IMG/VR virus record: IMGVR_UViG_3300044707_000238
Coordinates: 1-22,506 of that record
Source: a virus
Length of the DNA: 22,506 nt
Strand: one strand, 5' to 3'
Position numbers and translations under genes: made by a program
The notes under the pieces: generated by a model
Told to the model about the DNA's origin: nothing
The model's database searches: none
What the model saw: the letters and a program-made list of their open reading frames with translations, nothing else
Shown here: positions 5,552 through 20,133 of the stretch, piece by piece
Layout: each line of letters opens with the position of its first letter
Numbering within the stretch: the first letter of the stretch is position 1

Positions 5552-6637
5552 TTAACCTTTGTTAATTTGTACGTGTATAAATGAGCTTATTGTGCTATCT
5601 GCTGCACTTGTATTTTGAACTGATATTACAAGATATTGGTCAATTGTCCAATCGATATTTGAACTGACCACAACTGTACCTGTTTGAGTATCATCTGTGT
5701 ATACCCCAGCTATTGGAAAGCTCTCAGTGTTTGTAGATGATTTAACTGCTAATTGTCTCACCATTTGTGAGAATCTTGAAGTGTTTGCATTCGACGAAAT
5801 AGCAACGTTAGCACCACCAATTGCTGCACTTGTATTAACATATGCGCGAACTGATAACAAACCTGCAGTTCCCGTTTTACGAACGCGATTTCGAAATGTA
5901 ATTACATCACCAACTGCAACTGTATTAGCTGGAATTAAGATACTATCTGTTAATGTGTTGGCTGTTGTGCCTGTGACAGCAGTGCCATCTGTTGTCTTGA
6001 TTTTATTAATGATTGGAAGTGGCTGTTCAAATGTTTGTCTTATTTGTAACACACCATTAACTGCACTATGAATTACAATTGCAACCGTTACTTGGTTGTT
6101 TGGATATGTCGGCATAGTAGTAGTAAAACCACCTGCACTTGTACTTGATGCGTAAAGAATATCACCATCAGCAAATGCACTTGTATCGATACCGCGCAAT
6201 TGTCCAAAATGCATAACCATTCCATCTGCTCCATTAGCAATTGATTCAGCCGTTACACCCATGCAGTATTTTGATGGATATGTACCATTCGCTAAAAAAG
6301 GAGTAATCAAGATTCTTCCACTTGCACCAAGTGTACCATCTGCACGAACAACGGTACCTGCTGGTATTGTTGAACCAGTTTGATTCTTTGCGTAATAAAA
6401 TGTGTCTTGCATCAATTGCCCCACGTGACCATTCAATACAAGTTGCAATGTGCTATGGTCTGTGTCCCAACTTAATGTGCCTTGTGTTGTTGGTGTACTT
6501 GTTGGCGTTGTATCGAATGTAACAAAACCTGCATCTAAACCATATTCACCCAAGTCAACGTTTTGTGTTGCACCTGTGTATGGTACACCACCGCCACCAC
6601 CACTTGCAACTGCTTTTATATAGAAATCTTTACTCAT
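5552..6637 (-). CDS. Tail fibre-like / receptor-binding candidate protein
   Basis: The 361-aa protein has a Gly-rich hinge at residues 13-17 followed by VPYTGATQNVDLGEYGLDAG (about 18-37), a motif shared by fibre-like proteins of Bacteroidota phages and prophages. A repeated-fold domain follows (YYAKNQTGSTIPAGTVV, RILITPFLAN, YCMGVTAESIANGADGMV), typical of virion capping or fibre shafts. After a linker near residue 210, a separate beta-sandwich-like C-terminal domain of about 150 residues runs to the end (IPANTVAVGDVITFRNR...FIHVQINKG). This domain could be a head domain for host binding. The gene sits early in the tail block with an ATGA overlap to the upstream gene. The receptor-binding role is inference. 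Confidence 0.6.
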   Translation of the reverse strand: MSKDFYIKAVASGGGGGVPYTGATQNVDLGEYGLDAGFVTFDTTPTSTPTTQGTLSWDTDHSTLQLVLNGHVGQLMQDTFYYAKNQTGSTIPAGTVVRADGTLGASGRILITPFLANGTYPSKYCMGVTAESIANGADGMVMHFGQLRGIDTSAFADGDILYASSTSAGGFTTTMPTYPNNQVTVAIVIHSAVNGVLQIRQTFEQPLPIINKIKTTDGTAVTGTTANTLTDSILIPANTVAVGDVITFRNRVRKTGTAGLLSVRAYVNTSAAIGGANVAISSNANTSRFSQMVRQLAVKSSTNTESFPIAGVYTDDTQTGTVVVSSNIDWTIDQYLVISVQNTSAADSTISSFIHVQINKG

Positions 6638-8323: not shown

Positions 8324-8562
8324 TTGTACTTGCGAATTAACTCAAAAGTTTTTTTAATGTCTTGCCAGTTCAAGTGTGGTTTGTCATTTACTTTTGAACC
8401 ACTCCACGCAATTGTATAACCGTGATTGGCATTAACAAAATCTTCATACTTAACTTTGTTACCATTCACAGCGTCAAGATATATCCACGGATAATTACCG
8501 ACAAGCGAAATTTCAATGCCTATTTTTTTCAGTCGATTAATGAACACTTCGATTTCATTCAT
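8320..8562 (-). CDS. Conserved small phage protein (NYPWIYLD family, unknown role)
   Basis: An 80-aa protein with the pattern VGNYPWIYLDAVNGNKV, then ANHGYTIAW, and a C-terminal IKKTFELIRKYK helix. This combination is familiar from many Bacteroidota phage genomes as an uncharacterised family, usually next to the MKATLxFNL small protein, as here. It overlaps both neighbours by ATGA. The high aromatic content and short strands suggest a small alpha/beta fold. No enzyme function can be proposed. Confidence 0.6.
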   Translation of the reverse strand: MNEIEVFINRLKKIGIEISLVGNYPWIYLDAVNGNKVKYEDFVNANHGYTIAWSGSKVNDKPHLNWQDIKKTFELIRKYK

Positions 8563-8933
8563 AACTTATCGTTGATTACAATTTGTAATGGTTCTTGATT
8601 TGCACCAGTTAATTCAGTCATTTGTTTTGGATTACCATAAACACGTGACAATAATGTTTCAATAGAATACAAAGAACCTTTTTCTAATGATTTGCGCATT
8701 GCGTTTGCAATTGTCTTTTCAAGTATTGTGGCTTGTGGGTTGTCCCACACTTCTTTTAGTTCTTCAATATCCATTGCCATCATTGCTTGAATTGTATCAT
8801 TGATTTCGCTCAGTTTATAACCGTTCTCTTTTAATAATGATACATACTTGCGTGGTCTGCCTTTTCTATTTATTCGTTCGGGGTGTGTATCAAATCCATC
8901 ACCCTTCTTCAAGTTGTCTAATTTGTTTGCCAT
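8559..8933 (-). CDS. Small terminase subunit-like DNA packaging protein
   Basis: The 124-aa protein opens with a polar basic segment including RINRKGRPRKYVSLLKENG. A helical body follows (EINDTIQAMMAMDIEELKEVW, then TIANAMRKSLEKGSLYSIETLLSRVYG), and it ends in the pattern GNPKQMTELTGANQEPLQIVI. The K/N-G-R-P-R-K opening and the closing G.PKQ..E.TG....L.I..N are typical of small terminase-like proteins that bind viral DNA and recruit TerL. TerL lies 9 kb away on the other strand (17881-19188). The alternative is an unrelated DNA-binding adaptor. It stands 21 bp after the dioxygenase gene. Confidence 0.55.
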   Translation of the reverse strand: MANKLDNLKKGDGFDTHPERINRKGRPRKYVSLLKENGYKLSEINDTIQAMMAMDIEELKEVWDNPQATILEKTIANAMRKSLEKGSLYSIETLLSRVYGNPKQMTELTGANQEPLQIVINDKL

Positions 8934-8954: not shown

Positions 8955-9749
8955 TTAATCTAATCCAACAAATGCTTTCAAAGGATAGAACACCAATGAA
9001 TTTCTATACCCACCTTCGTGTGTTGGGATAATTGGTGTAACACCGTGAACATTTTTCCACGCTGGGTAAACAAGTATTGAATTGTCTTGTTGTCCGATTG
9101 TAGCATTGTAATCTGGTATATGCAAATCACCACCTTTTGAATTATGTTTCTTGCAGATAATTACGTTTACTGCTCCAACTATATTTCCAGTATCACGATG
9201 GAATGGTGCGCTGATATTGTAGTTTGAAATTGAAGAAGTAAAAAAATTTGCAAATCTCCATTTCTTTTCTACTTGCTCGAATAACTTTACTTGCTTTTCG
9301 TATTGGTTTGGCAGTATTTCTTTTATCAGTTGTTCGCTTTCCGTTGCTAACATCAACATTGCTTTTACAAAAGTTTGAGCTGATTTTTTTAAATGAACAC
9401 TTGATCTTGAAGGATAGGGTCTTGACATATGTGGTTTTGGTGGTATTGAACCTAAAATGCAAGAATATTGAGCAACAACATTTTTATATTTATAAATTCC
9501 TTTTTCTTCATCAAAGCCATCTACAGTTCTTCTATGCATTACTGATTTTGGAACGTTTTTACTTCTTAACTCAGCATTAGCCAAGTCTGCAAGTTTGCAC
9601 ATTTTATCTGGCATCTTGGTAAGATAGAAACCAATTGGAATACCATCTGAATAAAAGATACAATCTTCTGTTATATTAGGTTCAATGTATTCACAAGCCT
9701 CACCAATCTTTCTGCTGTGAGGAATAGGTGTTAAATCAATTCTTTTCAT
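8955..9749 (-). CDS. TET/JBP-type 2-oxoglutarate/Fe(II) dioxygenase (DNA base hydroxylase candidate)
   Basis: The 264-aa protein carries a double-stranded beta-helix core near its C-terminus. The iron facial triad is visible as H184-x-D186 (APFHRDTGN) and H235 (KNVHGVTP), with R249 (GGYRNSLVFY) as the likely 2-oxoglutarate-binding arginine. The intervening GGDLHIP and SILVYPAW strands also fit TET/JBP enzymes, which oxidise 5-methylcytosine or thymine methyl groups in DNA. It overlaps the glycosyltransferase gene by ATGA, the expected partner for sugar transfer to the new hydroxyl. Nine of ten arginines use AGA, unlike neighbouring tail genes. Target base (5mC or T) cannot be told. A different 2OG oxygenase substrate is possible but less likely given the partner. 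Confidence 0.8.
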   Translation of the reverse strand: MKRIDLTPIPHSRKIGEACEYIEPNITEDCIFYSDGIPIGFYLTKMPDKMCKLADLANAELRSKNVPKSVMHRRTVDGFDEEKGIYKYKNVVAQYSCILGSIPPKPHMSRPYPSRSSVHLKKSAQTFVKAMLMLATESEQLIKEILPNQYEKQVKLFEQVEKKWRFANFFTSSISNYNISAPFHRDTGNIVGAVNVIICKKHNSKGGDLHIPDYNATIGQQDNSILVYPAWKNVHGVTPIIPTHEGGYRNSLVFYPLKAFVGLD

Positions 9750-10477
9750 TTTACTATTTTTTTGTAGTGAGTAGCCAACCCTTTTATGTCAGTCTTCATA
9801 TCCACGCGCTCACCTTTTCTTTGCAAGGTTACAAAAGGATTCCACTCTTTACACATCTTCTTTGCAGATTCCTCATCTTTCTTTGCCTTATACATATCCT
9901 GCAACCCACCTGCATTGCTTCCAACATCTGGACAAGCAAACCAATATCTATTGAAGCGCAGTATACCATTACCATTCTTTATTGTTTGCAAGGCAAAGTC
10001 CCTATCTTCTTTTAGGTTAAACTCTGAACGGTAATTCCAAGAGATTTTCTTGACATTCATCAAAACACAAACTTCTGCAAACTTTTTATTTATTGAGTAA
10101 TTTGTTTTTTCATGCCAAGCGTGCTGCGTGTAATTGATACCAACAATTTCAAAAGGAAGTTTCTTTGCCTTATCTAAAATATCAAACCAAATAGAAGCGT
10201 CTTTCTTTACTGTCTTGCCGTTGTATATTCCGAAGGAAGTTACATCGTCGTCGCAGACAATAACCCATTCGTGATTGTTCTTTCTTGCGTAATCAAGCAT
10301 AAAGTTTCTGACATATCCAATTCCTTTATTGTTTTCTAAAATAGAAACTTTATTTGGAACTGGGTATCTGTCTATTTCCTGCGGTTCAATAAAATGGCGA
10401 ACTTCAATTCCAACTTGTTCAAAAAGTTTATACGTTTTTGTTGTTGGTCTTGACTTACTTGGTATAAAACAAATCAT
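9746..10477 (-). CDS. TET-associated-type glycosyltransferase (DNA base glycosylation candidate)
   Basis: The 243-aa protein looks like a GT-A-fold glycosyltransferase of the TET-associated group found in phages. It starts with CFIPSKSRPTTKTYKLFEQ, has an EPQEIDRY segment, GIGYVRNFMLDYA, and the metal/nucleotide-sugar motif CDDDVTSF (D76-D78). Later come LKEDRDFAL (about 155-163, possible base) and a GSNAGGL loop (186-192). Such enzymes add sugar to oxidised bases made by TET/JBP dioxygenases. It is coupled by ATGA on both sides, to the ParB-like gene upstream and to the dioxygenase downstream. Seven of eleven arginines use AGA/AGG. The donor sugar is unknown. A role in surface glycan synthesis is the main alternative. 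Confidence 0.75.
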   Translation of the reverse strand: MICFIPSKSRPTTKTYKLFEQVGIEVRHFIEPQEIDRYPVPNKVSILENNKGIGYVRNFMLDYARKNNHEWVIVCDDDVTSFGIYNGKTVKKDASIWFDILDKAKKLPFEIVGINYTQHAWHEKTNYSINKKFAEVCVLMNVKKISWNYRSEFNLKEDRDFALQTIKNGNGILRFNRYWFACPDVGSNAGGLQDMYKAKKDEESAKKMCKEWNPFVTLQRKGERVDMKTDIKGLATHYKKIVK

Positions 10478-11173: not shown

Positions 11174-11315
11174 AGCTCCCCCAAGAAAAACAAACGTTCA
11201 CGCTCATAAAGAGCATTTACACGATCCAAGCATTGGTGTATTGCAAGTGTTGACATTTGATACTGCGCTATGTCCTACGCAGGTTAATTGATTAATGCTA
11301 CGCATCAAATAAGAG

Positions 11316-11364
11316 TAAAAGAAAAGCGCAAATGGAGTAATGCAACAAACCACCAAATGCGCTT
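11316..11364 (-). terminator. Terminator-like hairpin after the 12.8-11.5 kb minus operon
   Basis: On the minus strand AAGCGCATTTGG (11364-11353) can pair with CCATTTGCGCTT (11335-11324): seven bp, two mismatches, then three bp, with a 17-nt loop. It is followed by a T-rich run (TTTTCTTTT). It lies about 100 nt beyond the stop at 11470. Factor-independent termination is inferred. The plus strand lacks a comparable T run. Confidence 0.5.
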
Positions 11365-11469
11365 CCTTTTGATTTTGGAAATCCTAAACTAACTAAATAT
11401 GATATGACAAATTGCATTGGTGCAAATTTCGTTTGATTATTCTTGATATAAAAATAAAGTTACCAACTG

Positions 11470-11892
11470 TTACGAACTTTTCAAAGATTCACGCATTGTT
11501 TTTATCTCGCGTTTAATACACGCACTACAAGTTGAACGTTCATTGTATGCTTGTGTAATTTGGTCTTTGTAAGCATAGAACTTGTTACGTTGTGCATCGT
11601 CAATCTTACCAGTTGATTCGATTGTATCAAGCAATTCAATCAACGCAAGTTTTTCTTCATCTGTTAATAGACCTTTCCATTTAGATGCTGGGCAAGTTGC
11701 AAGTGAAAGTTTTGCTTTGATGGGCATTACACAACCACACAAGTGAATTGCTTTCTTGCGATAAAGAACTTCAATTTGTTCTTCACCACCTACGATTAAA
11801 GTACCACACGATTGAGTGGATGCTTCAAAAAATTTACAATTGCGACAGATTTCTAATCGTCTATTGTATTCTGAACTTCTAACGAATAACAT
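11470..11892 (-). CDS. Cysteine-rich zinc-binding-like phage protein
   Basis: The 140-aa protein begins MLFVRSSEYNRRLEICRNCKFF. Eight cysteines lie in pairs: C16/C19, C29, C52/C54, C67 and C122/C125. The first group (CRNC...CG...CGC.MPIKAKLSLATCP..KW) is a familiar layout of small phage proteins thought to bind zinc. The C-terminal STCSACIKREIKTM forms a second possible site. A helical middle (EEKLALIELLDTIESTGKID) separates them. It overlaps the end of the sigma-like gene by 14 nt and is last in the operon before the terminator. Function is unknown. DNA or protein binding is likely. Confidence 0.6.
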   Translation of the reverse strand: MLFVRSSEYNRRLEICRNCKFFEASTQSCGTLIVGGEEQIEVLYRKKAIHLCGCVMPIKAKLSLATCPASKWKGLLTDEEKLALIELLDTIESTGKIDDAQRNKFYAYKDQITQAYNERSTCSACIKREIKTMRESLKSS

Positions 11893-12373
11893 TGCTTCTT
11901 AGTTTTTGTTTTACTTTATCTATTGTTCTATAAAGATATACTTGTGGTATACCAGTTTGTTTACTGAATTCTTTGTACGAAAAATCTTCGAGAATATATT
12001 CTTCAAATATCAAACGCTCGAATTCTGATAAGCGGCTAATCAAGATATCTAATTGCTCATTAGCTAATCGTGAACCTAACCACGTTTTGTCTTCTTCGTA
12101 GTTTTTGTCAACGAAATCACGCTTGTTTAATTTGTATTGAATGTATTGTTTGTTGAACGGTGATGAAGGTGAATTAACTGATAAGTACATAACACGAATT
12201 AGATAGAATTCAAATTCATCGTTCTGCAATAAATTATCAATGTGTTTACTTGTGATTGCGCTGATAATTGATTCGTGCAAAAGGTCTTCATACCATTCAG
12301 CATTACGCGCAATGTTACGTGCCAACTTTTTGAGATGGGTGTAATTCTTTGTTATATACGCGTCAAGTGTCAA
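11879..12373 (-). CDS. Sigma-70-like/transcription regulator candidate
   Basis: The 164-aa protein has a helical N-terminal part resembling sigma region 2 (LKKLARNIARNAEWYEDLLHE, about 14-34). Its C-terminal part resembles region 4 with a helix-turn-helix: LSEFERLIFEEYILEDFSYKE, then FSKQTGIPQVYLYRTIDKVKQ (about 115-158). Compact sigma-like proteins occur near phage middle/late genes and may redirect host RNA polymerase. No in-frame ATG is available near the beginning. TTG at 12373 is the likely start and lies 11 nt inside the upstream VRR-NUC gene. A HTH DNA-binding protein without sigma activity is the alternative. Confidence 0.5.
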   Translation of the reverse strand: MTLDAYITKNYTHLKKLARNIARNAEWYEDLLHESIISAITSKHIDNLLQNDEFEFYLIRVMYLSVNSPSSPFNKQYIQYKLNKRDFVDKNYEEDKTWLGSRLANEQLDILISRLSEFERLIFEEYILEDFSYKEFSKQTGIPQVYLYRTIDKVKQKLRSNVIR

Positions 12374-12767
12374 GGTACTTCTTTATAATTTCAATTGCTT
12401 CGTCACTGCCCTTACAAATATAACTTTCATACTTTCTAATTCGTAATTCGTCACGCCACCATTTTTGCTCTGGTGATGCCGTACCACCTTTTTCTTTTTT
12501 CATTTCAATTGCTAATCCAAAAAATTCACCACGTGGTTCATATATAAATAAGTCGGGAAATCCTTTTACATAACCAGTTCGTTTCATTTTGACTGCTTGT
12601 AAATAACTTGTGCGCATACCACCTGCTGATGCGCAATAAAGTGCATTTGGATAGTTAGCACGTATAAATTGTATCACCAATTGTTGCTGATATGCTTCTG
12701 AATTGACATTCAAAACACCTTTCTTGTATGTTTTTTTAGGTTTTCTATGTAAAGTTTTTACGTTCAT
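12363..12767 (-). CDS. VRR-NUC domain nuclease
   Basis: Counted from ATG 12767 (a TTG at 12773 would add two residues and is less likely), the protein has 134 aa. It shows the VRR-NUC form of the PD-(D/E)xK nuclease fold: a helix with SEAYQQQLVIQFI, ASAGGMRTS, KGFPDLFIYEP (D72), then GLAIEMKKEKGG (E88-x-K90) and SPEQKWW (Q101). Phage stand-alone VRR-NUC proteins are thought to cut branched DNA (Holliday junction-like) during replication or before packaging. It is the first gene of the minus operon, facing the early plus operon. Confidence 0.8.
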   Translation of the reverse strand: MNVKTLHRKPKKTYKKGVLNVNSEAYQQQLVIQFIRANYPNALYCASAGGMRTSYLQAVKMKRTGYVKGFPDLFIYEPRGEFFGLAIEMKKEKGGTASPEQKWWRDELRIRKYESYICKGSDEAIEIIKKYLDT

Positions 12768-12814
12768 TTTCAATCAGTTAGATATTAGTCAGAAAAAAAA
12801 GTGAAAAAAAAGTG

Positions 12815-12843
12815 TTGTAATTCAAAATGTCGTTCTATATTTG
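12815..12843 (+). promoter_or_regulatory. Plus-strand Bacteroidota-type promoter for the early operon
   Basis: TTG (12815-12817), 18-nt spacer, TATATTTG (12836-12843), which matches TTG-N17-23-TAnnTTTG exactly. Initiation would be expected near 12850, leaving an A-rich leader of about 29 nt (ending AACAAAATG) before the ATG at 12879. Confidence 0.7.
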
Positions 12844-12853
12844 CTCCATCAAA

Positions 12854-12886
12854 CAAAGATAATTAAAACAAAAACAAAATGAACAA
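12854..12886 (-). promoter_or_regulatory. Candidate minus-strand Bacteroidota promoter
   Basis: Minus strand TTG (12886-12884), 22-nt spacer, then TATCTTTG (12861-12854), a full TAnnTTTG match. It would begin transcription near 12847, about 80 nt before the VRR-NUC ATG. The -33 element lies just inside the first plus-strand gene, which lowers confidence a little. Confidence 0.45.
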
Positions 12887-13151
12887 GTCAGAAATCGAAC
12901 AATTATTTGTAGAGAAATTCTCAAAATTCACGAAGCCACAACAAGTTATTATTAATAAACTTTTAAGTGGTCACAAACTAACGGCTGTAAATACTCATAG
13001 AATGAACAATGGAGAATATAAGTGGATTGTCCCTTCCTCGCAGTATTTAGAGTACGCTGGGCACGTGCATAAAGCGTTCAGAGGAGTAGAGCATTCAATT
13101 TACAAATTAACTAACGTGAGAGTTAATCTGTGGTCATTCTATTTTGTATAA
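12879..13151 (+). CDS. First early-operon protein, unknown function
   Basis: This 90-aa protein (MNKSEIEQLFVEKFSKFTKP...) is not recognised. The first half is helical and basic, with KPQQVIINKLLSGHKL. The second half (EYKWIVPSSQYLEYAGHVHKA, then YKLTNVRVNLWSFYF) is aromatic and beta-like. It is the first gene behind the strong plus promoter, with a clean A-rich leader, so it should be among the first proteins made. This placement suggests a regulator or host-takeover protein, but nothing in the sequence proves that. Confidence 0.6.
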   Translation: MNKSEIEQLFVEKFSKFTKPQQVIINKLLSGHKLTAVNTHRMNNGEYKWIVPSSQYLEYAGHVHKAFRGVEHSIYKLTNVRVNLWSFYFV

Positions 13152-13169
13152 CTAATAAAAAAAAACAAA

Positions 13170-13325
13170 ATGCACAAAATACAATTAACAGACGAACAAG
13201 TAGAATTGTTGATGACCTCATTAGTGGAATTAACAAGCCGATTTTCAATGATGGAAAATATGCAAGATGAAGTTGAAGATTTGCGAAAATTAAGAAGGGA
13301 TATAAGAACTCAGATGAATTTTTAA
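13170..13325 (+). CDS. Small helical early protein (51 aa)
   Basis: The frame codes MHKIQLTDEQVELLMTSL, then an acidic/basic helical end (NMQDEVEDLRKLRRDIRTQ). Nearly the whole chain could form a coiled coil. It follows an ATAAAAAAAAACAAAATG-type leader, the same kind as its neighbours, which supports translation. Function is unknown. Confidence 0.6.
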   Translation: MHKIQLTDEQVELLMTSLVELTSRFSMMENMQDEVEDLRKLRRDIRTQMNF

Positions 13326-13352
13326 TCAATAACAAACAAAAAACAAAACACA

Positions 13353-13544
13353 ATGTACACAAATATCTACTTCAGTAACATCGAAATCTTTATCGCTGAG
13401 TGCGAACAAAGAAACATTAAACCAACGAACGTGTCATACGAGTACGGTGAAACAACTGGTGCAATTGATTTTGCAAGAAACGAAAAACTAATCATGTGCG
13501 ATGTTGCTTATTACAACTGCTCACGTTACGAACGCGCTCACTAA
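13353..13544 (+). CDS. Small early protein, unknown function (63 aa)
   Basis: MYTNIYFSNIEIFIAECEQ opens the protein, followed by VSYEYGETTGAIDFARN and a C-terminal part with CDVAYYNCSRYERAH. Three cysteines are present but not in a known spacing. The gene has a standard A-rich leader (AACAAAACACAATG). The fold and role are not known. It is one of a run of short orphan genes. Confidence 0.55.
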   Translation: MYTNIYFSNIEIFIAECEQRNIKPTNVSYEYGETTGAIDFARNEKLIMCDVAYYNCSRYERAH

Positions 13545-13545
13545 T

Positions 13546-13668
13546 ATGAAAAAAGAACTTAAATGGATAATCGTAACAATCGTAATCTTCGTTGTTATCG
13601 GTATCGTTGGAACAGACGAATACGAATTTGAAAAACGTCAAGAATCAGTAATAACTCAAAACAAATAA
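13546..13668 (+). CDS. Tiny single-pass membrane protein (40 aa)
   Basis: The frame codes MKKELKWIIVTIVIFVVIGI, then a polar tail GTDEYEFEKRQESVITQNK. Residues 7-21 form a clear membrane segment after a positive start, so the tail is probably outside the cytoplasm. The ATG is one base after the previous stop (TAATATG). It could change the host envelope, for example in superinfection exclusion, but this is only inferred from the topology and early position. Confidence 0.55.
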   Translation: MKKELKWIIVTIVIFVVIGIVGTDEYEFEKRQESVITQNK

Positions 13669-13672
13669 CAAA

Positions 13673-13966
13673 ATGAACACACAATTTAACACAGAATTTT
13701 TATCACAACTTGGAACAGCAGATTTTGAAAGTTGGATATTAGTACAAAAAGCGTATCGTGACGAATGCTGGAATGAAGCAATTATGGAATGCGGATTTAA
13801 CAAGAATAGCGGATATGTATATATTGCTCTTGAAAACGGAATTTGTATTGCATCTTGTTTCGGACAATCAGTTGACTATATTGTAACAGATTATGAAACT
13901 GGTGAAGAATACTTTGAAGATTCTTACGATGAAGCAATAAATAAAAACGAAGAATTAAACCCATAA
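13673..13966 (+). CDS. Early protein, unknown function (97 aa, acidic)
   Basis: MNTQFNTEFLSQLGTADFESW begins the protein. The middle (GYVYIALENGICIASCFGQSVDYIVTD) is strand-like and the end is strongly acidic (EEYFEDSYDEAINKNEEL). No family is recognised. An acidic small protein expressed early could mimic DNA or bind a host protein, a frequent theme in phage counter-defence, but this is speculation. Its leader is AACAAATAACAAAATG. Confidence 0.55.
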   Translation: MNTQFNTEFLSQLGTADFESWILVQKAYRDECWNEAIMECGFNKNSGYVYIALENGICIASCFGQSVDYIVTDYETGEEYFEDSYDEAINKNEELNP

Positions 13967-13977
13967 TAATAAATACA

Positions 13978-14172
13978 ATGACAAATGAAAACAAAACAAT
14001 CACACTCAGCCATCAAGAACGAAACGCTATTTACAACGCTATCATTGTTGCGCAAAATGAATACGCAGATAAGCGTTGCGGTAACGAAGCATTTGATGAA
14101 ACTCTTACCAGTCGAATCGCAGAACTTGAATCAATACTGCACAAAATTATTACAAGTCCATTCGACAAATAA
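13978..14172 (+). CDS. Small helical early protein (64 aa), possibly frameshifted
   Basis: The protein reads MTNENKTITLSHQERNAIYN, then an acidic helical part (AQNEYADKRCGNEAFDETLTS) and RIAELESILHKI. A good leader (AATAAATACAATG) supports this start over the overlapping ATG at 13985 in another frame. The stop at 14172 is followed by 136 nt that stay open in the +1 frame (see 14173-14308), so the true protein may be longer. Function is unknown. Confidence 0.5.
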   Translation: MTNENKTITLSHQERNAIYNAIIVAQNEYADKRCGNEAFDETLTSRIAELESILHKIITSPFDK

Positions 14173-14308
14173 ACGCAAGTATGTTTGTGTTTCAAAAAGT
14201 GCTGATGCTTACAGCTTGAGCCACAATGAAATTTCAAACAATATCGTGAAGTGCAAAAAGATTTCAGAATTGCGTTGGAACGATAGCATTATTGAACCAT
14301 ATTTGTAA
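14173..14308 (+). other. Coding-like tail in the +1 frame after the 64-aa gene
   Basis: A +1 frame relative to 13978-14172 runs through this gap and ends TAA at 14306-14308. It codes KRKYVCVSKSADAYSLSHNE, later NIVKCKKISELRWNDSIIEPYL, which looks like a normal protein end. The next gene leader starts right after this stop, as if a gene truly ends here. No ATG with a good leader begins the frame. A frameshift (programmed, mutational or sequencing error) or a non-ATG start could explain it. Confidence 0.4.
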
Positions 14309-14327
14309 ACAATTAAAACAAAATACA

Positions 14328-14660
14328 ATGAACAATCAATTTGAATTATGTGGTGTATGCGAAAACATTGCGCTCACACACGAACAACTAACATCATTTC
14401 GCAATTCGTTCTTTGCGCACATTAAAATCTGCGCTCTTGAAGGCGATTACAAACAACAAGTGATAACACCAGTTGCTCTGAATGGAAGATTATATAAGCT
14501 GCGCACGTATGGTGAATGGACTGAACACGAAGGTGTGGATCATTACGAATGCATTGATGCTGAACTTCAATCGAATATTGAGAATGTGTGGTGGGGATTG
14601 AACACTGATTGGTTTCACACAAGATTTAGACACAAAGATTTCGCACCAATAAATTTTTAA
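14328..14660 (+). CDS. Early protein, unknown function (110 aa)
   Basis: The ATG at 14328 (MNNQFELCGVCENIALTHEQ) has the standard leader (AATTAAAACAAAATACAATG). A longer reading from TTG at 14292 is unlikely. The protein is mixed alpha/beta, with VITPVALNGRLYKLRTYGEW and an aromatic end (VWWGLNTDWFHTRFRHKDF). No known domain is visible. It is the last of the short early genes before the SSB-like gene. Confidence 0.55.
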   Translation: MNNQFELCGVCENIALTHEQLTSFRNSFFAHIKICALEGDYKQQVITPVALNGRLYKLRTYGEWTEHEGVDHYECIDAELQSNIENVWWGLNTDWFHTRFRHKDFAPINF

Positions 14661-14738
14661 CAGATGGATTATGAACTAATGCGTTGGGAAGAACGCAACG
14701 AAAAGAAAGAACAAAGTAAACAATTAAATCAAAATAAA

Positions 14739-15203
14739 ATGAGTAACAAAAAAAGTGTAGTTAAACACGTTCAATCAGCAGGTACGTGGAATGGGATGTT
14801 CAAATTCGATATCGATTTTGAAAACGGTGATACCGGTACTTGTTTCTGCAAGGAAGAAGCAAGTGTTCAAAAGAACTTCCCAATCGGAAAAGAAGTCGAA
14901 TATGAATTCACTCCGATGGGCAAAGGTCACAAGGTAAAAGCAGTTTACAATCCAACGTCAACTGGTGGTTCTAATGGTGGTAATGGTAATGGTGGTTTTA
15001 AATCATTTGCAAAATCACCCGAAGAACAATCACGTATTGCACGAATGAACGCATTAACGAACGCAGTTAATTGGGCAGTATCAAAAGATTCAGCAACTGA
15101 ATTAGACGTGCTAACAATTGCATCTGCATTCGAGAACTTCATTATGAGCGGATTGAACACATCATCAACATCAACAAATAATACTGAAGACATTCCATTC
15201 TAA
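14739..15203 (+). CDS. ssb: Single-stranded DNA-binding protein-like (OB fold, acidic tail)
   Basis: From ATG 14739 the protein has 154 aa. An OB-like strand set is visible in residues 8-70 (VKHVQSAGTWNGMFKFDIDF, ENGDTGTCFCKEE, GKEVEYEFTPMGKGHKVKAV). A Gly/Asn-rich linker follows (about 74-87), then a helical part (SPEEQSRIARMNALTNAVNW). It ends TEDIPF, matching the DDIPF-type tip by which SSBs recruit partners. Thus it should coat single-stranded DNA at the replication fork. An in-frame ATG at 14664 would add 25 residues, but the leader before 14739 (AATTAAATCAAAATAAAATG) favours the shorter form. The 14661-14738 gap holds nothing else clear. Confidence 0.7.
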   Translation: MSNKKSVVKHVQSAGTWNGMFKFDIDFENGDTGTCFCKEEASVQKNFPIGKEVEYEFTPMGKGHKVKAVYNPTSTGGSNGGNGNGGFKSFAKSPEEQSRIARMNALTNAVNWAVSKDSATELDVLTIASAFENFIMSGLNTSSTSTNNTEDIPF

Positions 15204-15403
15204 TGAAAAAAAGTACAATAACTTTTATAATTGATGAAATACACAATGCTAATTGTATTGATTCTGCAGCTGGAATATATATTGAAGAAGTTATAATTCC
15301 AATAATTTTGAGAGCAAAAGAAATACATCAGCAAGAAATAAAAGAATCATATTGTAAAGGAATGTTAGATTCAGAAAAATTTTATAACGAAAACTATTTT
15401 TAA
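15203..15403 (+). CDS. Small hypothetical protein coupled to the SSB-like gene
   Basis: A 66-aa protein, MKKSTITFIIDEIHNANCID, then helical (YIEEVIIPIILRAKEIHQQ) with a polar tail. Its start overlaps the SSB-like stop (TAATG), so its amount should follow that of the SSB-like protein. It is not recognised. A helper for replication is plausible only from position. Confidence 0.5.
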   Translation: MKKSTITFIIDEIHNANCIDSAAGIYIEEVIIPIILRAKEIHQQEIKESYCKGMLDSEKFYNENYF

Positions 15404-15404
15404 A

Positions 15405-15698
15405 ATGAAAAAGCTAATTAACTTAACTCAAGAAGTAAAATCATTACTTGAAAACAGACCTGCACTGCGTGAAAACAATCGTAAGTTGTGCATCGCAATT
15501 TGGAAAAAAGAAATGCGTGTGAAAAAACTTTCGGATAATTTTGAATTCGAATATGGTCGCGGTGCATTGTCTTGTGGGGATAACATCGTTCGCGTTGCTC
15601 GATTGCTCAAGGCAGAACACAAAGAACTGCGTGGAATGAATCACGTAACAAATCAAAAGAAAGCGTTAATCGGTAAAAAAATCTTAAGAAAAAAATGA
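15405..15698 (+). CDS. Conserved small phage protein, unknown function
   Basis: The 97-aa basic protein has the pattern LLENRPALRENNRKLCIAIW, then ALSCGDNIVRVARLLKAEH and KELRGMNH. A layout of P.LR..D..L....W...LS....I.R.RR.....P.LRG is common in phage early regions of Bacteroidota and other hosts. The function is not established, though DNA binding is possible from its basic nature. Its stop overlaps the next start by ATGA. Confidence 0.6.
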   Translation: MKKLINLTQEVKSLLENRPALRENNRKLCIAIWKKEMRVKKLSDNFEFEYGRGALSCGDNIVRVARLLKAEHKELRGMNHVTNQKKALIGKKILRKK

Positions 15699-16045
15699 AA
15701 ACACAAAGAAAAAAATTCGACAAAGAAAGAATAATTGAATTTTGCAAATTGGTTAATGCTGGAATGAAACCAAAAGATGCTTTGGCTAAAATGAAAGCGT
15801 GTCAAGGATATCAAACAGCACTCAAAAAAAGCGGAATTTATTACCAAGTTGGTGATAATTATTATGCAGTTGAACGATTAACAGATGCTAAATATGACGC
15901 TTTCAAAAATTTAAGATATCAAGAACAAAAAAAATATAATATCAAAAGTGTTAATAAATATGAATTGCCAGTACAACGTAAACCAAGAAAGAAAAAACAA
16001 TTAAACACAATTCAAAAATTTATAAAAAATATATTTAAGATATGA
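15695..16045 (+). CDS. Basic protein, possible DNA binder, unknown function
   Basis: The 116-aa protein is Lys-rich. The N-terminal part (FDKERIIEFCKLVNAGMKPK, then DALAKMKACQGYQTALKKSG) looks like a small helical domain of helix-turn-helix type. The C-terminal part is very basic (RKPRKKKQ). It is joined by ATGA overlaps to both neighbours. A nucleic acid-binding role is suggested by composition only. Confidence 0.5.
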   Translation: MKTQRKKFDKERIIEFCKLVNAGMKPKDALAKMKACQGYQTALKKSGIYYQVGDNYYAVERLTDAKYDAFKNLRYQEQKKYNIKSVNKYELPVQRKPRKKKQLNTIQKFIKNIFKI

Positions 16046-16284
16046 TAGTTGAACGTTATAACACACCATTCGCACGATTCGTGAAGAAGAATTTTGGTAC
16101 AATTAACAAGTTCAAAAAAGTTTTGAGTGTAAGCGAGCCAACCGTTCGCTTATACTTGAAACACCCAACACGAATGCGCATCGAAGATTTCAATCGCATC
16201 TGTAATTTTTTGGAAATGAAGCGCGAAGATGTTTGGAAATCAATGATAACTGAAGTAACAATTAAAAATGAAGGCAATGAATGA
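16042..16284 (+). CDS. Small helix-turn-helix protein (Cro/XRE-like)
   Basis: The 80-aa protein shows a helix-turn-helix arrangement: FARFVKKNFGTINKFKKVLS, then VSEPTVRLYLKHPTRM (recognition helix), IEDFNRICNFLEMKREDVW. The spacing and the conserved late helix match small Cro/XRE-like regulators in phages. Such a protein could repress or activate the early promoter or serve in replication. Its start overlaps the previous gene by ATGA and its end overlaps the DnaA-like gene by 17 nt. Confidence 0.6.
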   Translation: MIVERYNTPFARFVKKNFGTINKFKKVLSVSEPTVRLYLKHPTRMRIEDFNRICNFLEMKREDVWKSMITEVTIKNEGNE

Positions 16285-16816
16285 CATAACTGGTACACGC
16301 GCAATACGTGCAATTAAAAATGAGATTCTTGATATGATTCCACCAACACACTACAAGCGTTTTAATCAATTGTGGGAGCTTGTTGTACCCAGCGTAACAA
16401 CGCCATCAGCAGAACAGATTGAAGTGCAACAACAAATTGCGTGTGAACGTGATAGATTTTGGCTATGCGTTGAAGACAAAGTGTGTACGCACATTGGAAT
16501 AAACAGCGCAGAACTTTACAACAAAACACGCGTTCGTGAAGTTAGCCACTCTCGACAAATAGTGTGGTGGATAGTTTACAATACTTGCAGAATTTCTTTA
16601 CAAGCATTAGCGAATCGATACTACAAAGACCACGCAACGTGTTTACACGGAATCAGACAAGTGAATGGATATGTACAACACGATAAATCTTTTCGATTAG
16701 ATGTTGAACTTATATGCGATGCAATTACGAACGCAGGTTTTACACAAGCGAAAGAATTCTTCATTACTTTTACAAATGAATGTGAACGTCAAAAAAACAA
16801 AAAACAAAAATTATGA
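16268..16816 (+). CDS. DnaA domain IV-like replication/origin-binding protein
   Basis: The 182-aa protein has a helical N-terminal part and then a segment like the DnaA C-terminal DNA-binding domain: REVSHSRQIVWWIVYNT, ISLQALANRYYKDHATCLHG and IRQVNGYV (about residues 88-140). The SR...W......SL..LA..Y..DH.TxLHGI pattern mirrors DnaA signature elements (basic loop and DHxTV helix). It lacks the AAA+ ATPase domain, so it would bind origin or host DnaA boxes without being a full initiator. The start may be 16268 or ATG 16277. Neighbours support a replication role. Confidence 0.65.
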   Translation: MKAMNDITGTRAIRAIKNEILDMIPPTHYKRFNQLWELVVPSVTTPSAEQIEVQQQIACERDRFWLCVEDKVCTHIGINSAELYNKTRVREVSHSRQIVWWIVYNTCRISLQALANRYYKDHATCLHGIRQVNGYVQHDKSFRLDVELICDAITNAGFTQAKEFFITFTNECERQKNKKQKL

Positions 16817-17208
16817 ATGGTTATTTTCTAATGAAAAAAATTGATGCGTTAGAACTGCGCATCAAAGAACAACAAGAGCAAATTGATGCAATCGAAAAAC
16901 GTTTGAAGCAACGTGAACCAACCGGTAAACGATTTCAACCACCAACGCAAGAACAAGTTGTAGATTATATTTGCAACGATTTACAAAAGTTATGTGGTGA
17001 AGATGCACTGGTGTTTAGTGAAAAGTTTATTGCACACTATGAAGCGAATGGTTGGAAGGTTGGAAGAAACGCAATGAAGGATTGGAAAGCATCAGTGCGT
17101 AAATGGGACATCGAACAATTTAATAAACAAAAAAATGCAACAATCAAGAATGGAAAATTTGATTCAACGAATGCCGAACGCATCTACAAAGATGCTTTCA
17201 ATATCTGA
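16813..17208 (+). CDS. Replication-associated phage protein with coiled coil
   Basis: The 131-aa protein opens with a coiled coil (KIDALELRIKEQQEQIDAIE). After this comes a helical domain with FQPPTQEQVVDYIC, FSEKFIAHYEANGW and VGRNAMKDWKASVRKWDI. The F.PPt.e.V..Y......F...Y.a.GW.vG...MkdWkaavr.W pattern recurs at the end of phage replication proteins (primosome or helicase-loading proteins), here as a stand-alone unit. The start has an ATGA overlap with the DnaA-like gene. The exact partner is unknown. Confidence 0.6.
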   Translation: MNGYFLMKKIDALELRIKEQQEQIDAIEKRLKQREPTGKRFQPPTQEQVVDYICNDLQKLCGEDALVFSEKFIAHYEANGWKVGRNAMKDWKASVRKWDIEQFNKQKNATIKNGKFDSTNAERIYKDAFNI

Positions 17209-17884
17209 GCGTGTAACACTTGCAGAACGTCAAAGTGAATTTATAAGCAAACACGATTTACCAACATTCGTAAAGCTATGCGCAAAGTTGTGTGCGATGT
17301 ATGGTCTGCAACTCCCCGAAGCACAATTATTACAACTGCTCAAAGATTTCATTGATAAACATTATGCGTGGTGTACTTTTGAACATTGGAATATCGCATT
17401 CGAACTCAATGCATCGAATCAATTAGAAAAAAAGATTGAACCATTTGGAGCGTTAACCATTACATTTTTAGGTGATGTATTAACTTGTTACAAACCATTG
17501 CGAGACAAAGCGAATTTAGATTGGCAACGTGAAGTCAATGAATCAAAGAAACAAATTGCACCAGTTGTAAACGAAGAAGATTGGTTGAACTCTTTACGTG
17601 AAGACATCGATGCATTCAAGAAAAAGAAGTTCACGGTAATTGATATGCGTGGTTCAATTATGTTGGAATGGTTGGAAACAAGCGGAAGAATTGCACACGA
17701 TTATTTTAGTGATGAAGAATATCGCAAGGCGAAATTTGAAGCGAAGCGAATTGTATTTTCTGATTTGCAAATGTCACAAGCTAAATACGATAGAATGGTT
17801 GAAGGCAAAAAAGAAAAGGTGCGTGATTACATTCGCATTCAAGGTCTGCGTGAATTGTATAAGTTGTATTTATCAAAACAATGA
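17192..17884 (+). CDS. Replication-associated protein of unknown mechanism
   Basis: The frame is open from ATG 17135, but the ATG at 17192 (MLSISERVTLAERQSEF) gives only a 17-nt overlap with the previous gene and is preferred, leaving 230 aa. The protein is helical: KLCAKLCAMYGLQLPEAQLL, HYAWCTFEHWNIAFELNASN, and a C-terminal basic region. The LC..YGL.LP....L..L..F....Y.W.t...I..AFE.N.sg pattern is known to me from Bacteroidota phage replication regions, without a proven role. It lies directly before TerL (ATGA overlap). A helicase loader or primosome part is possible. Confidence 0.55.
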   Translation: MLSISERVTLAERQSEFISKHDLPTFVKLCAKLCAMYGLQLPEAQLLQLLKDFIDKHYAWCTFEHWNIAFELNASNQLEKKIEPFGALTITFLGDVLTCYKPLRDKANLDWQREVNESKKQIAPVVNEEDWLNSLREDIDAFKKKKFTVIDMRGSIMLEWLETSGRIAHDYFSDEEYRKAKFEAKRIVFSDLQMSQAKYDRMVEGKKEKVRDYIRIQGLRELYKLYLSKQ

Positions 17885-19188
17885 ATCAATACAAACCACA
17901 ATATCTACAACGTCAAGTCGAAGCGTTAATGCATCTTGCAACGGATTCACCAGTTGAACAAGTGTTGTATGGTGGTGGTGCAGGTGGTGGTAAAACAAGG
18001 TTCGGTTGTATGTGGCAAATACAAAGAAGGTTGAAGTACGCTGGTACACGTTCACTTATTGGAAGAAGCAAATTAGATACACTAAAAAAAACAACGCTCA
18101 ATACATTCTTTGAAACCTGCGCAGATTTTGGTTTACTTGCAGATAAGCATTACACGTACAATGGTCAAACGAATGTGATTACATTCTTTAATGGTTCTGA
18201 AATTGTATTAAAAGATTTGTTTGCATACCCATCAAATCCAAATTTCGATTCATTAGGTTCGCTTGAAATTACTGATTACTTCATTGATGAAGTCGCTGAA
18301 GTAACAGAAAAAGCAGTTAACATTGTTCATTCACGATGCAGATACAAGTTGAATGAATTCAATTTAATACCAAAGGGATTTCTTTCGTGCAATCCATCAA
18401 AGGGTTGGTTGTATAATGAATTTTATTTGAAGTATCGCAATAACGAATTACCAGTTCACCGTGCATTTGTTCAAGCATTGCCAACTGATAATCCGCATTT
18501 ACCACAAGCATACATTGAATCTTTAAGACGATTGCCCGAATACGATAGAAAACGATTGTTAGAAGGCAACTGGGAATTCGATGACGATTCAGATAAGTTA
18601 TTTGCAACTGATAATTTACTGCGAATGTTCCGCAATGAATTACTTGATGGAACAAAATACATAACATCAGACATTGCGCGATTCGGTAAAGACAGAACAA
18701 TCATTTGCGTGTGGAATGGTTTAACACTTATTGAATTAAAAATGCTACATAAAGCATCTATTGATGAAGTAGTGAATGAAATTCGCAACACATCAAAAAA
18801 TCACAACGTATTGTTGCAAAATGTCGTGTGTGATGAAGATGGTTTGGGTGCTGGTGCAGTTGATTTTTTAAAATGTCGCGGTTTCCTTAATGGATCTAAA
18901 CCAAAGCAACCGCAATATCAAAACTTGAAATCAGAATGCTATTACACACTTGCGCAGTACATCGAAGAAAACAAGTTAACGATTTTAGTTAATGACAAAA
19001 AAGAACAAATTGTGCGCGAACTGGAAATGATTAAACGCCATCGTGCAGATGTTGATGGAAAACTGCAAGTAACACCAAAAGACCAAATCAAATTACGCGA
19101 AGGAATTTCACCCGATATTGCTGATGCTATTATGATGCGAATGTTTTTTGAATTGCATAAATCGTATGGTCAATACTTTGTCGGTTAA
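17881..19188 (+). CDS. terL: Terminase large subunit (TerL)
   Basis: The 435-aa protein has all main parts of a packaging motor. Walker A is GGGAGGGKT at residues 31-39, Walker B with the catalytic glutamate is YFIDE (133-137), and the coupling motif is FLSCNPS (167-173). A C-terminal RNase H-like nuclease has acidic residues at ITSDIARFG (D264), VVCDEDGLG (D318/D320) and SPDIADA (D412/D415). It cuts concatemers and pumps DNA into the head by ATP hydrolysis. Unusually it follows replication genes and is not beside the small terminase-like gene (8559-8933) or a portal gene. Confidence 0.93.
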   Translation: MNQYKPQYLQRQVEALMHLATDSPVEQVLYGGGAGGGKTRFGCMWQIQRRLKYAGTRSLIGRSKLDTLKKTTLNTFFETCADFGLLADKHYTYNGQTNVITFFNGSEIVLKDLFAYPSNPNFDSLGSLEITDYFIDEVAEVTEKAVNIVHSRCRYKLNEFNLIPKGFLSCNPSKGWLYNEFYLKYRNNELPVHRAFVQALPTDNPHLPQAYIESLRRLPEYDRKRLLEGNWEFDDDSDKLFATDNLLRMFRNELLDGTKYITSDIARFGKDRTIICVWNGLTLIELKMLHKASIDEVVNEIRNTSKNHNVLLQNVVCDEDGLGAGAVDFLKCRGFLNGSKPKQPQYQNLKSECYYTLAQYIEENKLTILVNDKKEQIVRELEMIKRHRADVDGKLQVTPKDQIKLREGISPDIADAIMMRMFFELHKSYGQYFVG

Positions 19189-19211
19189 CAAAAATAAACT
19201 AAATTCACATA

Positions 19212-19421
19212 ATGAAATACATATACGAAACAATGGGAATAACGCAAGAACGCGAACGCTTCCTAATCACAATGCTATCGACATTAGTGCAACAACAAAA
19301 ACAAATTGGTGATATTCTTACTGAATTTCACAAGTCAAAAAATCTTACATCAAAAGAAAAAATGTACTTGTCATTTTGCGCAGGTGCGATTCTTGAAAAG
19401 AAACACAACGAAGAAAACTAA
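19212..19421 (+). CDS. Small helical protein, unknown function (69 aa)
   Basis: MKYIYETMGITQERERFLIT begins this helical protein, which continues QQQKQIGDILTEFHKSKNLTS and ends in a short apolar helix (KMYLSFCAGAILE). The leader is AAATTCACATAATG. It is not recognised. It is coupled to the next gene by TAATG. Confidence 0.55.
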   Translation: MKYIYETMGITQERERFLITMLSTLVQQQKQIGDILTEFHKSKNLTSKEKMYLSFCAGAILEKKHNEEN

Positions 19422-19579
19422 TGAAAACTTACGATTTTATCCATCCAGTTACTGGTGATGTATTTAGTGTTGAAGGTAAATTGTGTTTTGAAGATAACGG
19501 TTTTTGGATTGTAAAAATCAATTCAAAAGTTGTTGCAATTTTCAAAACAGATTATTCATTTATAGTACATTATAAATAA
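19421..19579 (+). CDS. Small beta-rich protein (52 aa)
   Basis: The frame codes MKTYDFIHPVTGDVFSVEGK, then LCFEDNGFWIVKINSKVVAI and FKTDYSFIVHYK. The alternating pattern suggests a small beta fold. The ATG overlaps the previous stop (TAATG), which supports real translation. No function can be named. Confidence 0.55.
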   Translation: MKTYDFIHPVTGDVFSVEGKLCFEDNGFWIVKINSKVVAIFKTDYSFIVHYK

Positions 19580-19588
19580 AAAAAAACA

Positions 19589-19909
19589 ATGCAAACAGAC
19601 GAAGAAAAATTAAGAGTAATTAACTTGCTGATGTGGTTGCAAGTTGCAATATACGCGTGTGATGAAGTTGAAAACATCAGATGGTTCAATAAGCATCGAA
19701 CTAAACAATCATTACAAGCGTTAGTGCGCACGATTCTTACTGAACACAACGTGGTTATTAAAGCGTTTTGGGATACCGAAGGTGTTCGAATGGATGAAAT
19801 AACTTTGATTCTTGACGAACTAACAAAACAAATTGCAAGTTGCCAGTATCACAAATTGCCCGAAGTAACTGAATGGATTGTTAACAATGATTATTTACGC
19901 GAGATATGA
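19589..19909 (+). CDS. Hypothetical protein (106 aa, helical)
   Basis: The protein starts MQTDEEKLRVINLLMWLQVA after an AAATAAAAAAAAACAATG leader. It is helical throughout (KQSLQALVRTILTEHNVV, DEITLILDELTKQIASCQ) and ends near VTEWIVNNDYLREI. No catalytic motif is visible. Its stop overlaps the next start by ATGA. The function is unknown. Confidence 0.55.
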   Translation: MQTDEEKLRVINLLMWLQVAIYACDEVENIRWFNKHRTKQSLQALVRTILTEHNVVIKAFWDTEGVRMDEITLILDELTKQIASCQYHKLPEVTEWIVNNDYLREI

Positions 19910-20133
19910 GTAAATTATTAGATGAAGTAATTAGTGATTTAAAACACCGCGAATTGAAAGGCGTGGAAACATATAACACAACAATGGATCGTACTGATTT
20001 AACGCAACAAGAATGGTTGCAACATCTTTACGAAGAACTGCTTGATGCTTCGCTTTACACGAAGAAATTAATTAAGACATTCGATAAATTGAAGTTTAAT
20101 TTACAAGAAGAAAAAGTAAAAGACCTTCGATAA
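19906..20133 (+). CDS. Small MazG/NTP-PPase-like helical protein
   Basis: The 75-aa protein has KHRELKGVETYNTTMDRTDL, then EWLQHLYEELLDASLYTKKLI (about 37-57). The pattern G..TYGttm.R.dl...EwlqH.yEEllDaalY resembles short phage proteins related to the MazG-like/all-alpha nucleotide pyrophosphatase group, where an EE..D helix binds magnesium. If active it could clean nucleotide pools. The short length (one helix pair) leaves this uncertain. It is the last gene of the plus operon, and its end overlaps the end of the minus-strand spanin gene by 38 nt. Confidence 0.5.
   Translation: MSKLLDEVISDLKHRELKGVETYNTTMDRTDLTQQEWLQHLYEELLDASLYTKKLIKTFDKLKFNLQEEKVKDLR

What the first reader, a model, noticed from the sequence alone, without database searches (positions are those of the whole stretch)
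16268..17884. DnaA domain IV-like protein without ATPase, beside two replication proteins
The 182-aa protein keeps the DnaA DNA-binding signature (basic loop and DHATCLHG helix) but lacks the AAA+ part. It is coupled to a coiled-coil GW..GR..MKDW protein and the 230-aa helical protein. No polymerase or helicase gene is visible in the window. The trio may capture host replication machinery at a phage origin.
Basis: partly seen in the sequence, partly recalled or inferred. Interest (0 to 1): 0.5.

Follow-up and report, generated by a model that had tools for sequence, protein, structure and literature searches.

The report
Three-part phage replication starter module
A group of uncultured phages carries a fixed set of three small genes (a DNA-binding piece like that of the bacterial replication starter DnaA, a coupling protein, and a protein of a new family) that probably starts phage DNA copying by bringing in the host's own helicase.

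Summary
Window 16268-16816 (P1) encodes a stand-alone DnaA domain IV (Pfam Bac_DnaA_C, 9e-13) without AAA+ part. P2 (16813-17208) is the C-terminal 'MKDW' domain of known phage replication initiators, with a short coiled coil in place of the usual DNA-binding N-terminus. P3 (about 17192-17884) is an undescribed all-helical family. The trio is more than chance: of 80 phage loci found through P2, all 61 with short P2 have P3 and 49 have the DnaA piece, against 0 and 5 of 19 with the fused form. All 117 loci found through P3 with enough upstream DNA have both partners (22 of 22 clusters). A practically complete 30-kb relative has no recognisable helicase, loader, primase or polymerase. In several phages the gene after an MKDW gene is a helicase or helicase loader, so P3 most likely recruits host DnaB; this is inference, and the pattern is partial. 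DnaA boxes are not enriched, so an origin built on host-type boxes is not supported. Best reading: a split initiator (P1 finds the origin, P2 bridges, P3 brings the helicase). Side result: a covarying structured RNA, unknown to Rfam, in the same phages.

The parts
16268..16816 (+). P1: stand-alone DnaA domain IV protein (182 aa; start shared with close relatives is Met4 at 16277)
   Evidence: Bac_DnaA_C 9.4e-13; profile matches solved A. aeolicus and E. coli DnaA; key DNA-reading residues conserved
16813..17208 (+). P2: short coiled coil plus the MKDW C-terminal domain of phage replication initiators (131 aa)
   Evidence: phrog_15768 7e-20 to positions 109-210 of a 228-position profile; tblastn to annotated replication proteins; heptad pattern of residues 6-34 reached by 5 of 2000 shuffles, of residues 1-34 by 117 of 2000
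17192..17884 (+). P3: all-helical protein of an undescribed family (230 aa from the ATG at 17192; frame open from 17135), proposed recruiter of host helicase
   Evidence: AlphaFold2 pLDDT 86.5, pTM 0.48 from 62 sequences; window protein has no Pfam match above cut-off (DUF3134 at 0.011 only) and no PHROG match; beside P1 and P2 in 117 of 117 P3-selected loci with room
16042..16284 (+). 80-aa Cro/C1-like HTH protein just upstream, overlapping P1; kept in the close group, role open
   Evidence: present in 15 of 15 close records, window included; HTH_26 0.0019, below cut-off

Best explanation
The trio is a phage replication-initiation module in which the work of one initiator plus its loader is spread over three small proteins. 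P1 is the sequence-specific DNA-binding part, of DnaA domain IV type, and marks the phage origin. P2, whose usual N-terminal DNA-binding domain is replaced by a coiled coil, bridges P1 and P3. P3 brings the host DnaB helicase without an ATPase of its own, as lambda P does (that lambda P has none is recalled). Host primase and polymerase then copy the genome. Shown: the domain identity of P1 and P2, the fixed association, the lack of other recognisable replication genes in the practically complete relative. Inferred: origin binding, the P1-P2-P3 contacts, helicase recruitment.
For: P1 is DnaA domain IV. The residue aligned with E. coli Arg399 is Arg in 55 of 56 aligned domains, that with Arg407 in 56, that with His434 in 56 (numbering assumes that chain 1J1V starts at residue 374, recalled). 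P2 matches the C-terminal part of phage replication initiators, which elsewhere follows a longer N-terminus, Lin1244_N in the Porphyromonas one. All 61 short P2 have P3 beside them, 0 of 19 fused ones do. All 117 P3-selected loci with 1.5 kb upstream have both partners. In the four annotated phage records opened, of 32 with a P2 match, the gene after the MKDW gene is a DnaC-like loader, a DnaB or DNA helicase or 'replication protein P'. Of 16 long-form IMG/VR loci whose following ORF was tested, 2 are DnaB, 2 DnaC-like, 2 helicase loader/G39P, 2 weaker relatives of the last. 28 of 28 trio records lack DnaB_C and IstB/DnaC-type matches. Probable P3 relatives in Bacteroides phage B124-14 and Parabacteroides phage PD691P4 follow a possibly HTH-type protein.
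Against: No origin found: no DnaA-box cluster, no iteron array, no clear embedded conserved site. P3 resembles no known loader in sequence, and its fold search is inconclusive. The place after an MKDW gene is not always a loader: 8 of 16 tested long-form loci have another or an unnamed ORF there. Some phages carry a DnaA-IV protein beside a fused MKDW protein (5 of 19) or beside other initiator-type genes, so P1 need not replace the lost domain of P2. L071 has P2 and P3 but no DnaA-IV in 4.8 kb upstream. No P1-P2 fusion was seen. The Gln408 position is Gln in only 28 of 56.
Confidence: 0.5

Rival explanations
1. P1 is a decoy or competitor of host DnaA: it occupies DnaA boxes at host oriC and stops new rounds of host replication, so that helicase and replisome are free for the phage; P2 and P3 alone start phage replication.
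For: Most DNA-reading residues match those of a full-length DnaA from a gut scaffold (L020, organism not named), including Ala at the Thr435 position, while DnaA boxes are scarce in the phage genome. P1 has no AAA+ part, so it could bind but not open an origin as DnaA does. In some phages DnaA-IV accompanies a complete initiator-type protein.
Against: The fixed linkage with P2 and P3 (117 of 117) suits a working complex better than a take-over gene. Box scarcity is modest (11 and 2 of 224 permuted motifs as low) and may have other causes.
Confidence: 0.18
2. P1 is a transcription regulator with a DnaA-type HTH that controls the replication operon; only P2 and P3 act in replication.
For: DnaA itself can act as a transcription factor (abstract start of PMC8203912 in the listing); a second HTH ORF lies just upstream (16042-16284). 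In part of the phages the P1 and P2 frames are hundreds of bases to about 2 kb apart.
Against: In 86 of 137 P3-selected loci with both, the open frames of P1 and P2 overlap or lie within 100 bases (stop-to-stop frames, so true gene overlap is not shown). DnaA-type DNA contacts are kept across diverged copies.
Confidence: 0.16
3. P3 is the small terminase or another packaging factor, being next to the large terminase gene.
For: P3 overlaps the large terminase gene in the window.
Against: The P3 to terminase distance runs from -4 to 1132 bases in the 15 close records while the P3 frame always overlaps P2. A small terminase gene lies elsewhere in G002 (phrog_309, 3e-7), and the window has a protein with the same C-terminal tail at the same place (8559-8933), although that one hits no terminase family.
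Confidence: 0.04

Closest known systems
Lambda O/P initiator-loader pair (features recalled, apart from P being unrelated to DnaC)
   Same: Small phage proteins made to borrow the host helicase; no phage helicase.
   Different: DNA binding is by a DnaA domain IV on its own protein; three genes instead of two; no iterons found; no match of P3 to a lambda P family.
Phage replication initiators with a C-terminal MKDW domain (Porphyromonas phage005b, Vibrio 1.236.O, Psychrobacter Y8A)
   Same: Same C-terminal domain as P2; next gene is a helicase or loader.
   Different: Those have a long N-terminal part before the domain; P2 has a short coiled coil instead and a separate DnaA-IV partner.
Bacterial DnaA
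   Same: Domain IV with its main DNA-reading residues.
   Different: No AAA+ domain III found; cannot by itself open an origin in the DnaA way.
Stand-alone DnaA-IV proteins of other phages (Leeuwenhoekiella Arctus_1, Rhizobium RHph_TM3_3_3)
   Same: Domain IV in a short protein next to replication-type genes.
   Different: Neighbours are an annotated DNA replication protein or a DUF1376 protein, not P2 and P3.
Bacteroides phage B124-14 ORF061c and Parabacteroides phage PD691P4 gp48
   Same: Probable relatives of the N-terminal half of P3 (20 and 35 bits to profile A7; tblastn only 0.07 and 0.04), directly after a possibly HTH-type gene.
   Different: No DnaA-IV or MKDW domain recognised in the 18 proteins tested there (one DnaA-IV-like hit of 7.8 bits not counted).

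Membership tests
DnaA initiator | DNA-binding domain IV | tested here: met
   Bac_DnaA_C 9.4e-13; A. aeolicus DnaA 3e-6, E. coli 1j1v 6e-4
DnaA initiator | AAA+ ATPase domain III | tested here: not met
   only Bac_DnaA_C matches in 182 aa at E up to 1
DnaA initiator | clustered DnaA boxes at the origin | tested here: not met
   no enrichment and no clusters of E. coli-type boxes in phage DNA; other box types were not tested
MKDW-type phage replication initiator | C-terminal MKDW domain | tested here: met
   P2: tblastn E down to 3e-11; 15 invariant columns in 8 aligned sequences
MKDW-type phage replication initiator | long fused N-terminal part (DNA-binding domain) | tested here: not met
   N-terminal part at most 62 aa in 61 loci (4 of them cut by a contig end), 84 aa or more in 19
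Lambda P-type loader | sequence membership of P3 | tested here: not met
   no such Pfam family among those matched by 62 members
Lambda P-type loader | binds DnaB and loads it | not testable with these tools
   needs protein work
DnaC/DnaI AAA+ loader | AAA+ domain | tested here: not met
   P3: no AAA family among Pfam matches of 62 members
G39P loader/inhibitor | profile similarity | tested here: not met
   no Pfam match; hhalign probability 0.2% (only 4 G39P-like sequences)
Known folds (PDB) | P3 matches a solved fold | tested here: inconclusive
   Foldseek best E 0.98; VIA best Z 4.8 over residues 11-114 only
Small terminase | fixed beside the large terminase and the only candidate | tested here: not met

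The most novel reading that the evidence does not exclude
P1-P2-P3 is a split initiator of a kind that I did not find described: a free DnaA domain IV reads the phage origin at sites unlike the E. coli-type box, a coiled coil on P2 joins it, and P3 founds a further, ATPase-free class of loaders for bacterial DnaB, also present in Bacteroides phages such as B124-14.
Probability: 0.32. Interest if true: 0.75.

Novelty: new variant of a known kind. Interest (0 to 1): 0.6.

Why it matters
It shows a DnaA DNA-binding domain used as a separate building block in viruses and ties it to a new protein family that may load host helicase. If true, it adds to the few known ways in which phages seize DnaB, and gives a three-protein system in which origin reading, bridging and helicase loading can be studied apart. 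Probable relatives of P3 in cultivable Bacteroides phages make it testable.

Tried and rejected
DnaA-box search as proof of an origin: boxes are not enriched in the window, in five genomes, in two 30-kb relatives against permuted motifs (of 600 permuted motifs drawn, the 224 with an expectation of 4 or more were used) or in 80 loci, long-form ones included (56 seen, 88.3 expected, no three within 400 bases). Repeats in 12774-20133: only weak short families, no iteron array. Synonymous-site conservation in the trio: no clear embedded element. P3 fold from 12 close sequences: pLDDT 48, not used. P3 against the PDB: Foldseek best E 0.98; VIA best Z 4.8, with RuvB-like, clamp-loader and other AAA+ rows below it, within what the tool calls a common arrangement. 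BFVD: 14 matches at E up to 0.001, all uncharacterised proteins; one G39P-named protein at E 1.6, dropped after hhalign gave 0.2%. Genome scans for P3 relatives (84,980 species): none confirmed, so no host is named; Bacteroidota is a guess from annotated relatives. [quoted passage not shown] its record names a DnaD/DnaB protein followed by DnaC; I did not search it for domain IV. Plasmid 'DnaA-like' initiators of Paracoccus (passages) were met in the same paper search and not compared.

On re-checking I tested the ORF after six more long-form MKDW genes: none is a loader. That weakens the argument from gene order, so I lowered the main odds from 0.55 to 0.5 and the novel reading from 0.35 to 0.32 and raised two rivals by 0.01 each.

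Papers: searches (open-licence PMC only) listed none whose title or abstract start describes this trio. Passages seen: PMC6391071, PMC5742627, PMC6209633, PMC4319499. All others: listings only.

Full report
What is there. The window is a 22,506-base phage contig (a virus record). P1 (16268-16816, +) hits only Bac_DnaA_C in Pfam (9.4e-13, residues 69-132). A profile of 12 close relatives finds the solved DnaA of A. aeolicus (3e-6) and E. coli domain IV 1j1v (6e-4). P1 was not folded. P2 (16813-17208) hits phrog_15768 (7e-20, profile positions 109-210 of 228). P3 (17192-17884, frame open from 17135) hits no Pfam family above cut-off (DUF3134 at 0.011, below cut-off) and no PHROG; over 62 relatives, phrog_26016 of unknown function is reached by 31 (best 4e-6).

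Close relatives. Fourteen IMG/VR loci found with P1 carry P1, P2 and P3 in the same order. The distance from P3 to the large terminase gene varies from -4 to 1132 bases in 15 records including the window, so P3 travels with P1 and P2, not with the terminase. One relative, G002, is 30,004 bases with a 98-base repeat at its ends by my comparison. All 49 of its listed ORFs were scanned against Pfam, 45 and 4 (one of them as its G001 homologue, a portal-like protein): terminase, protease, VRR nuclease, phosphoesterase, GIY-YIG, sigma-like and HTH families, DUF6712 and Bac_DnaA_C appear; no helicase, primase, polymerase or loader. ORFs under 60 aa or dropped by overlap were not scanned.

Distant relatives, found through P2. 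The part before the domain is at most 62 aa in 61 and at least 84 aa in 19. Four of the 61 (L064, L089, L105, L113) start at a contig end, so their true length is unknown. All 61 short ones have P3 next to them; none of the 19 long ones does (L097 has only 9 bases of room). DnaA-IV is found in 49 of 61 and 5 of 19. Of the 12 short ones without it, 11 have under 1.2 kb upstream; L071 has 4.8 kb and still none. Many of the 80 are near copies of each other.

Distant relatives, found through P3. Two P3 profiles gave 153 loci (three were already held), of which 152 hold P3. All 117 with at least 1.5 kb upstream have both a short P2 and DnaA-IV, in 22 of 22 clusters at 90% identity; no P2 was of the long kind and no P1-P2 fusion was seen. 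Some contigs are the same as in the first survey, and these queries came from the more distant groups, so this is a second view and not a wholly independent one.

Role of P2 and P3. Of 32 annotated-collection records with a P2 match I opened six; four of the six carry annotation (the two without). In these four the MKDW domain ends proteins called replication initiation protein (Porphyromonas), DUF4373 (Vibrio 1.236.O), hypothetical protein (Vibrio 1.061.O) and helix-turn-helix protein (Psychrobacter), and the gene directly after is a DnaC-like loader, a DnaB helicase, a DNA helicase and 'replication protein P'. Of 18 long-form IMG/VR loci with room, a following ORF was tested in 16: 2 DnaB, 2 DnaC-like, 2 helicase loader/G39P (above cut-off), 1 G39P below cut-off, 1 sharing an unknown PHROG with those, 1 methylase, 1 weak '3D' domain, 6 without a family (the ORF tested is not always the very next one, and one search used Pfam only). 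So the rule that a loader follows holds in about half. P3 sits in that place. 28 of 28 trio records tested have no DnaB_C and no IstB/DnaC-type match, against 1 and 2 of 12 records with the long form; most records are probably fragments. Probable P3 relatives in Bacteroides phage B124-14 (ORF061c, 20 bits, 1.2e-7) and Parabacteroides phage PD691P4 (gp48, 35 bits, 6.7e-12) come from a local profile search over 18 chosen proteins, so the E-values are for 18 only; tblastn over the whole phage collection gives 0.07 and 0.04. They follow a protein with HTH hits below cut-off. P3 is predicted all helix (pLDDT 86.5, pTM 0.48) with no clear solved match. DnaC and lambda P are stated to be unrelated in sequence and structure (passages of PMC6391071), so a new loader need not look like a known one. 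That P3 loads helicase is an inference from place and from what is missing.

Role of P1. The review PMC5742627 (passages) says that Arg399 reads the minor groove, that the helix 434-451 reads the major groove, and that R399A and T435M fail to bind. In 56 aligned domains (54 from the 80 loci, the window, and the full-length DnaA of L020, an unannotated gut scaffold), the Arg399 position is Arg in 55, Arg407 in 56, His434 His in 56, Asp433 Asp in 42, Thr436 Thr in 52, Gln408 Gln in only 28; the Thr435 position is Ala in 52, as in the L020 DnaA. Many rows are near copies. So most of the DNA-reading surface is kept and P1 should bind DNA. Yet DnaA boxes are not enriched: 3 against 8.2 expected, 2 and 1 in G001 and G002 against 8.0 and 8.5, as low as 11 and 2 of 224 permuted motifs, 56 against 88.3 in 80 loci and no clusters. 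P1 either reads other sites, needs only one or two, or acts on host DNA. P2's coiled coil (heptad pattern in residues 6-34 reached by 5 of 2000 shuffles, stretch chosen by eye; residues 1-34: 117 of 2000) is the likely contact point, without direct evidence.

Caution on the split-initiator reading. DnaA-IV proteins also stand beside fused MKDW proteins (5 of 19 long-form loci) and beside other replication-type genes in Leeuwenhoekiella and Rhizobium phages. In Porphyromonas phage005b the match is weak (29 bits, below cut-off). So P1 may add to P2 and not replace its lost domain.

Side result: a structured RNA. Window 11190-11382 (+), between two minus-strand genes, is kept in the five genomes compared. 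Folding of window 11175-11400 alone gives z -1.97 on the plus strand and -1.00 on the minus strand. A covariance model from nine close sequences finds it in 7 of 16 further trio genomes (9 of 18 with the two that helped build it), in 3 of 99 shorter trio loci, and in 0 of 18 records not known to hold the trio. On 14 aligned sequences 23 of 30 pairs show changes on both sides, 76 cells against 23.3 in shuffles and 7 to 14 in slid controls (the alignment was fitted to the model, which leans towards it). On the nine-sequence alignment not fitted to the model, 6 of 31 pairs and 16 cells do, against 3.6 (reached by 29 of 500 shuffles) and 5.2 (0 of 500); further pair types are no more than in shuffles. 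Rfam has no match at gathering score and two chance-level ones in this region at E up to 5. A link to replication is not shown.

Verdict. The domain parts of P1 and P2 are known; the fixed three-gene arrangement and the P3 family I did not find in the papers searched.

Noticed in passing
window 11190-11382 (+): Conserved structured RNA-like element with strong covariation (23 of 30 pairs with both-sided changes), no Rfam match at gathering score, found in 7 of 16 further trio phages and 0 of 18 others. On its plus strand it lies opposite to both flanking genes, after a long A/G tract.
   Followed up: yes
window 8559-8933 (-); L032:4035-4445; L030:486-767: Small-terminase position: three different N-terminal parts end in the same tail QIVINDKL in the window, G002 and G001; only the G002 version hits terminase small subunit families (phrog_309). 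Looks like swapping of the DNA-binding part with a kept tail.
   Followed up: partly
window 14664-15203 (+): 179-aa protein, conserved, with an acidic tail ending DIPF like single-stranded DNA-binding proteins; no Pfam hit above cut-off. SSB likeness is by eye only.
   Followed up: no
window 17884 to large terminase start, relatives: The space between P3 and the large terminase gene differs from -4 to 1132 bases among 15 close records: a likely hotspot for small genes.
   Followed up: no
window 5552-6637 (-): Protein 97% identical to G002 but only 46% and 38% in two parts to G001, between well-kept neighbours: likely a swapped module.
   Followed up: no
window 8955-10477 (-): Two genes with PHROG matches to auxiliary enzymes (phrog_6059 'queuine tRNA-ribosyltransferase', phrog_842 glucosyltransferase); no G001 or G002 ORF in the list is matched to them.
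   Followed up: no
window 11879-12773 (-): Sigma-factor-like protein (phrog_1740, 4e-10) and a nuclease-like protein (phrog_824, unknown function, 2e-28; phrog_5702 Holliday junction resolvase, 4e-16) on the other strand.
   Followed up: no
L055:5917-6288: Another phage contig with a 123-aa DnaA-IV protein near a Lin1244-type protein and a gene that looks like a DnaB helicase by eye.
   Followed up: partly
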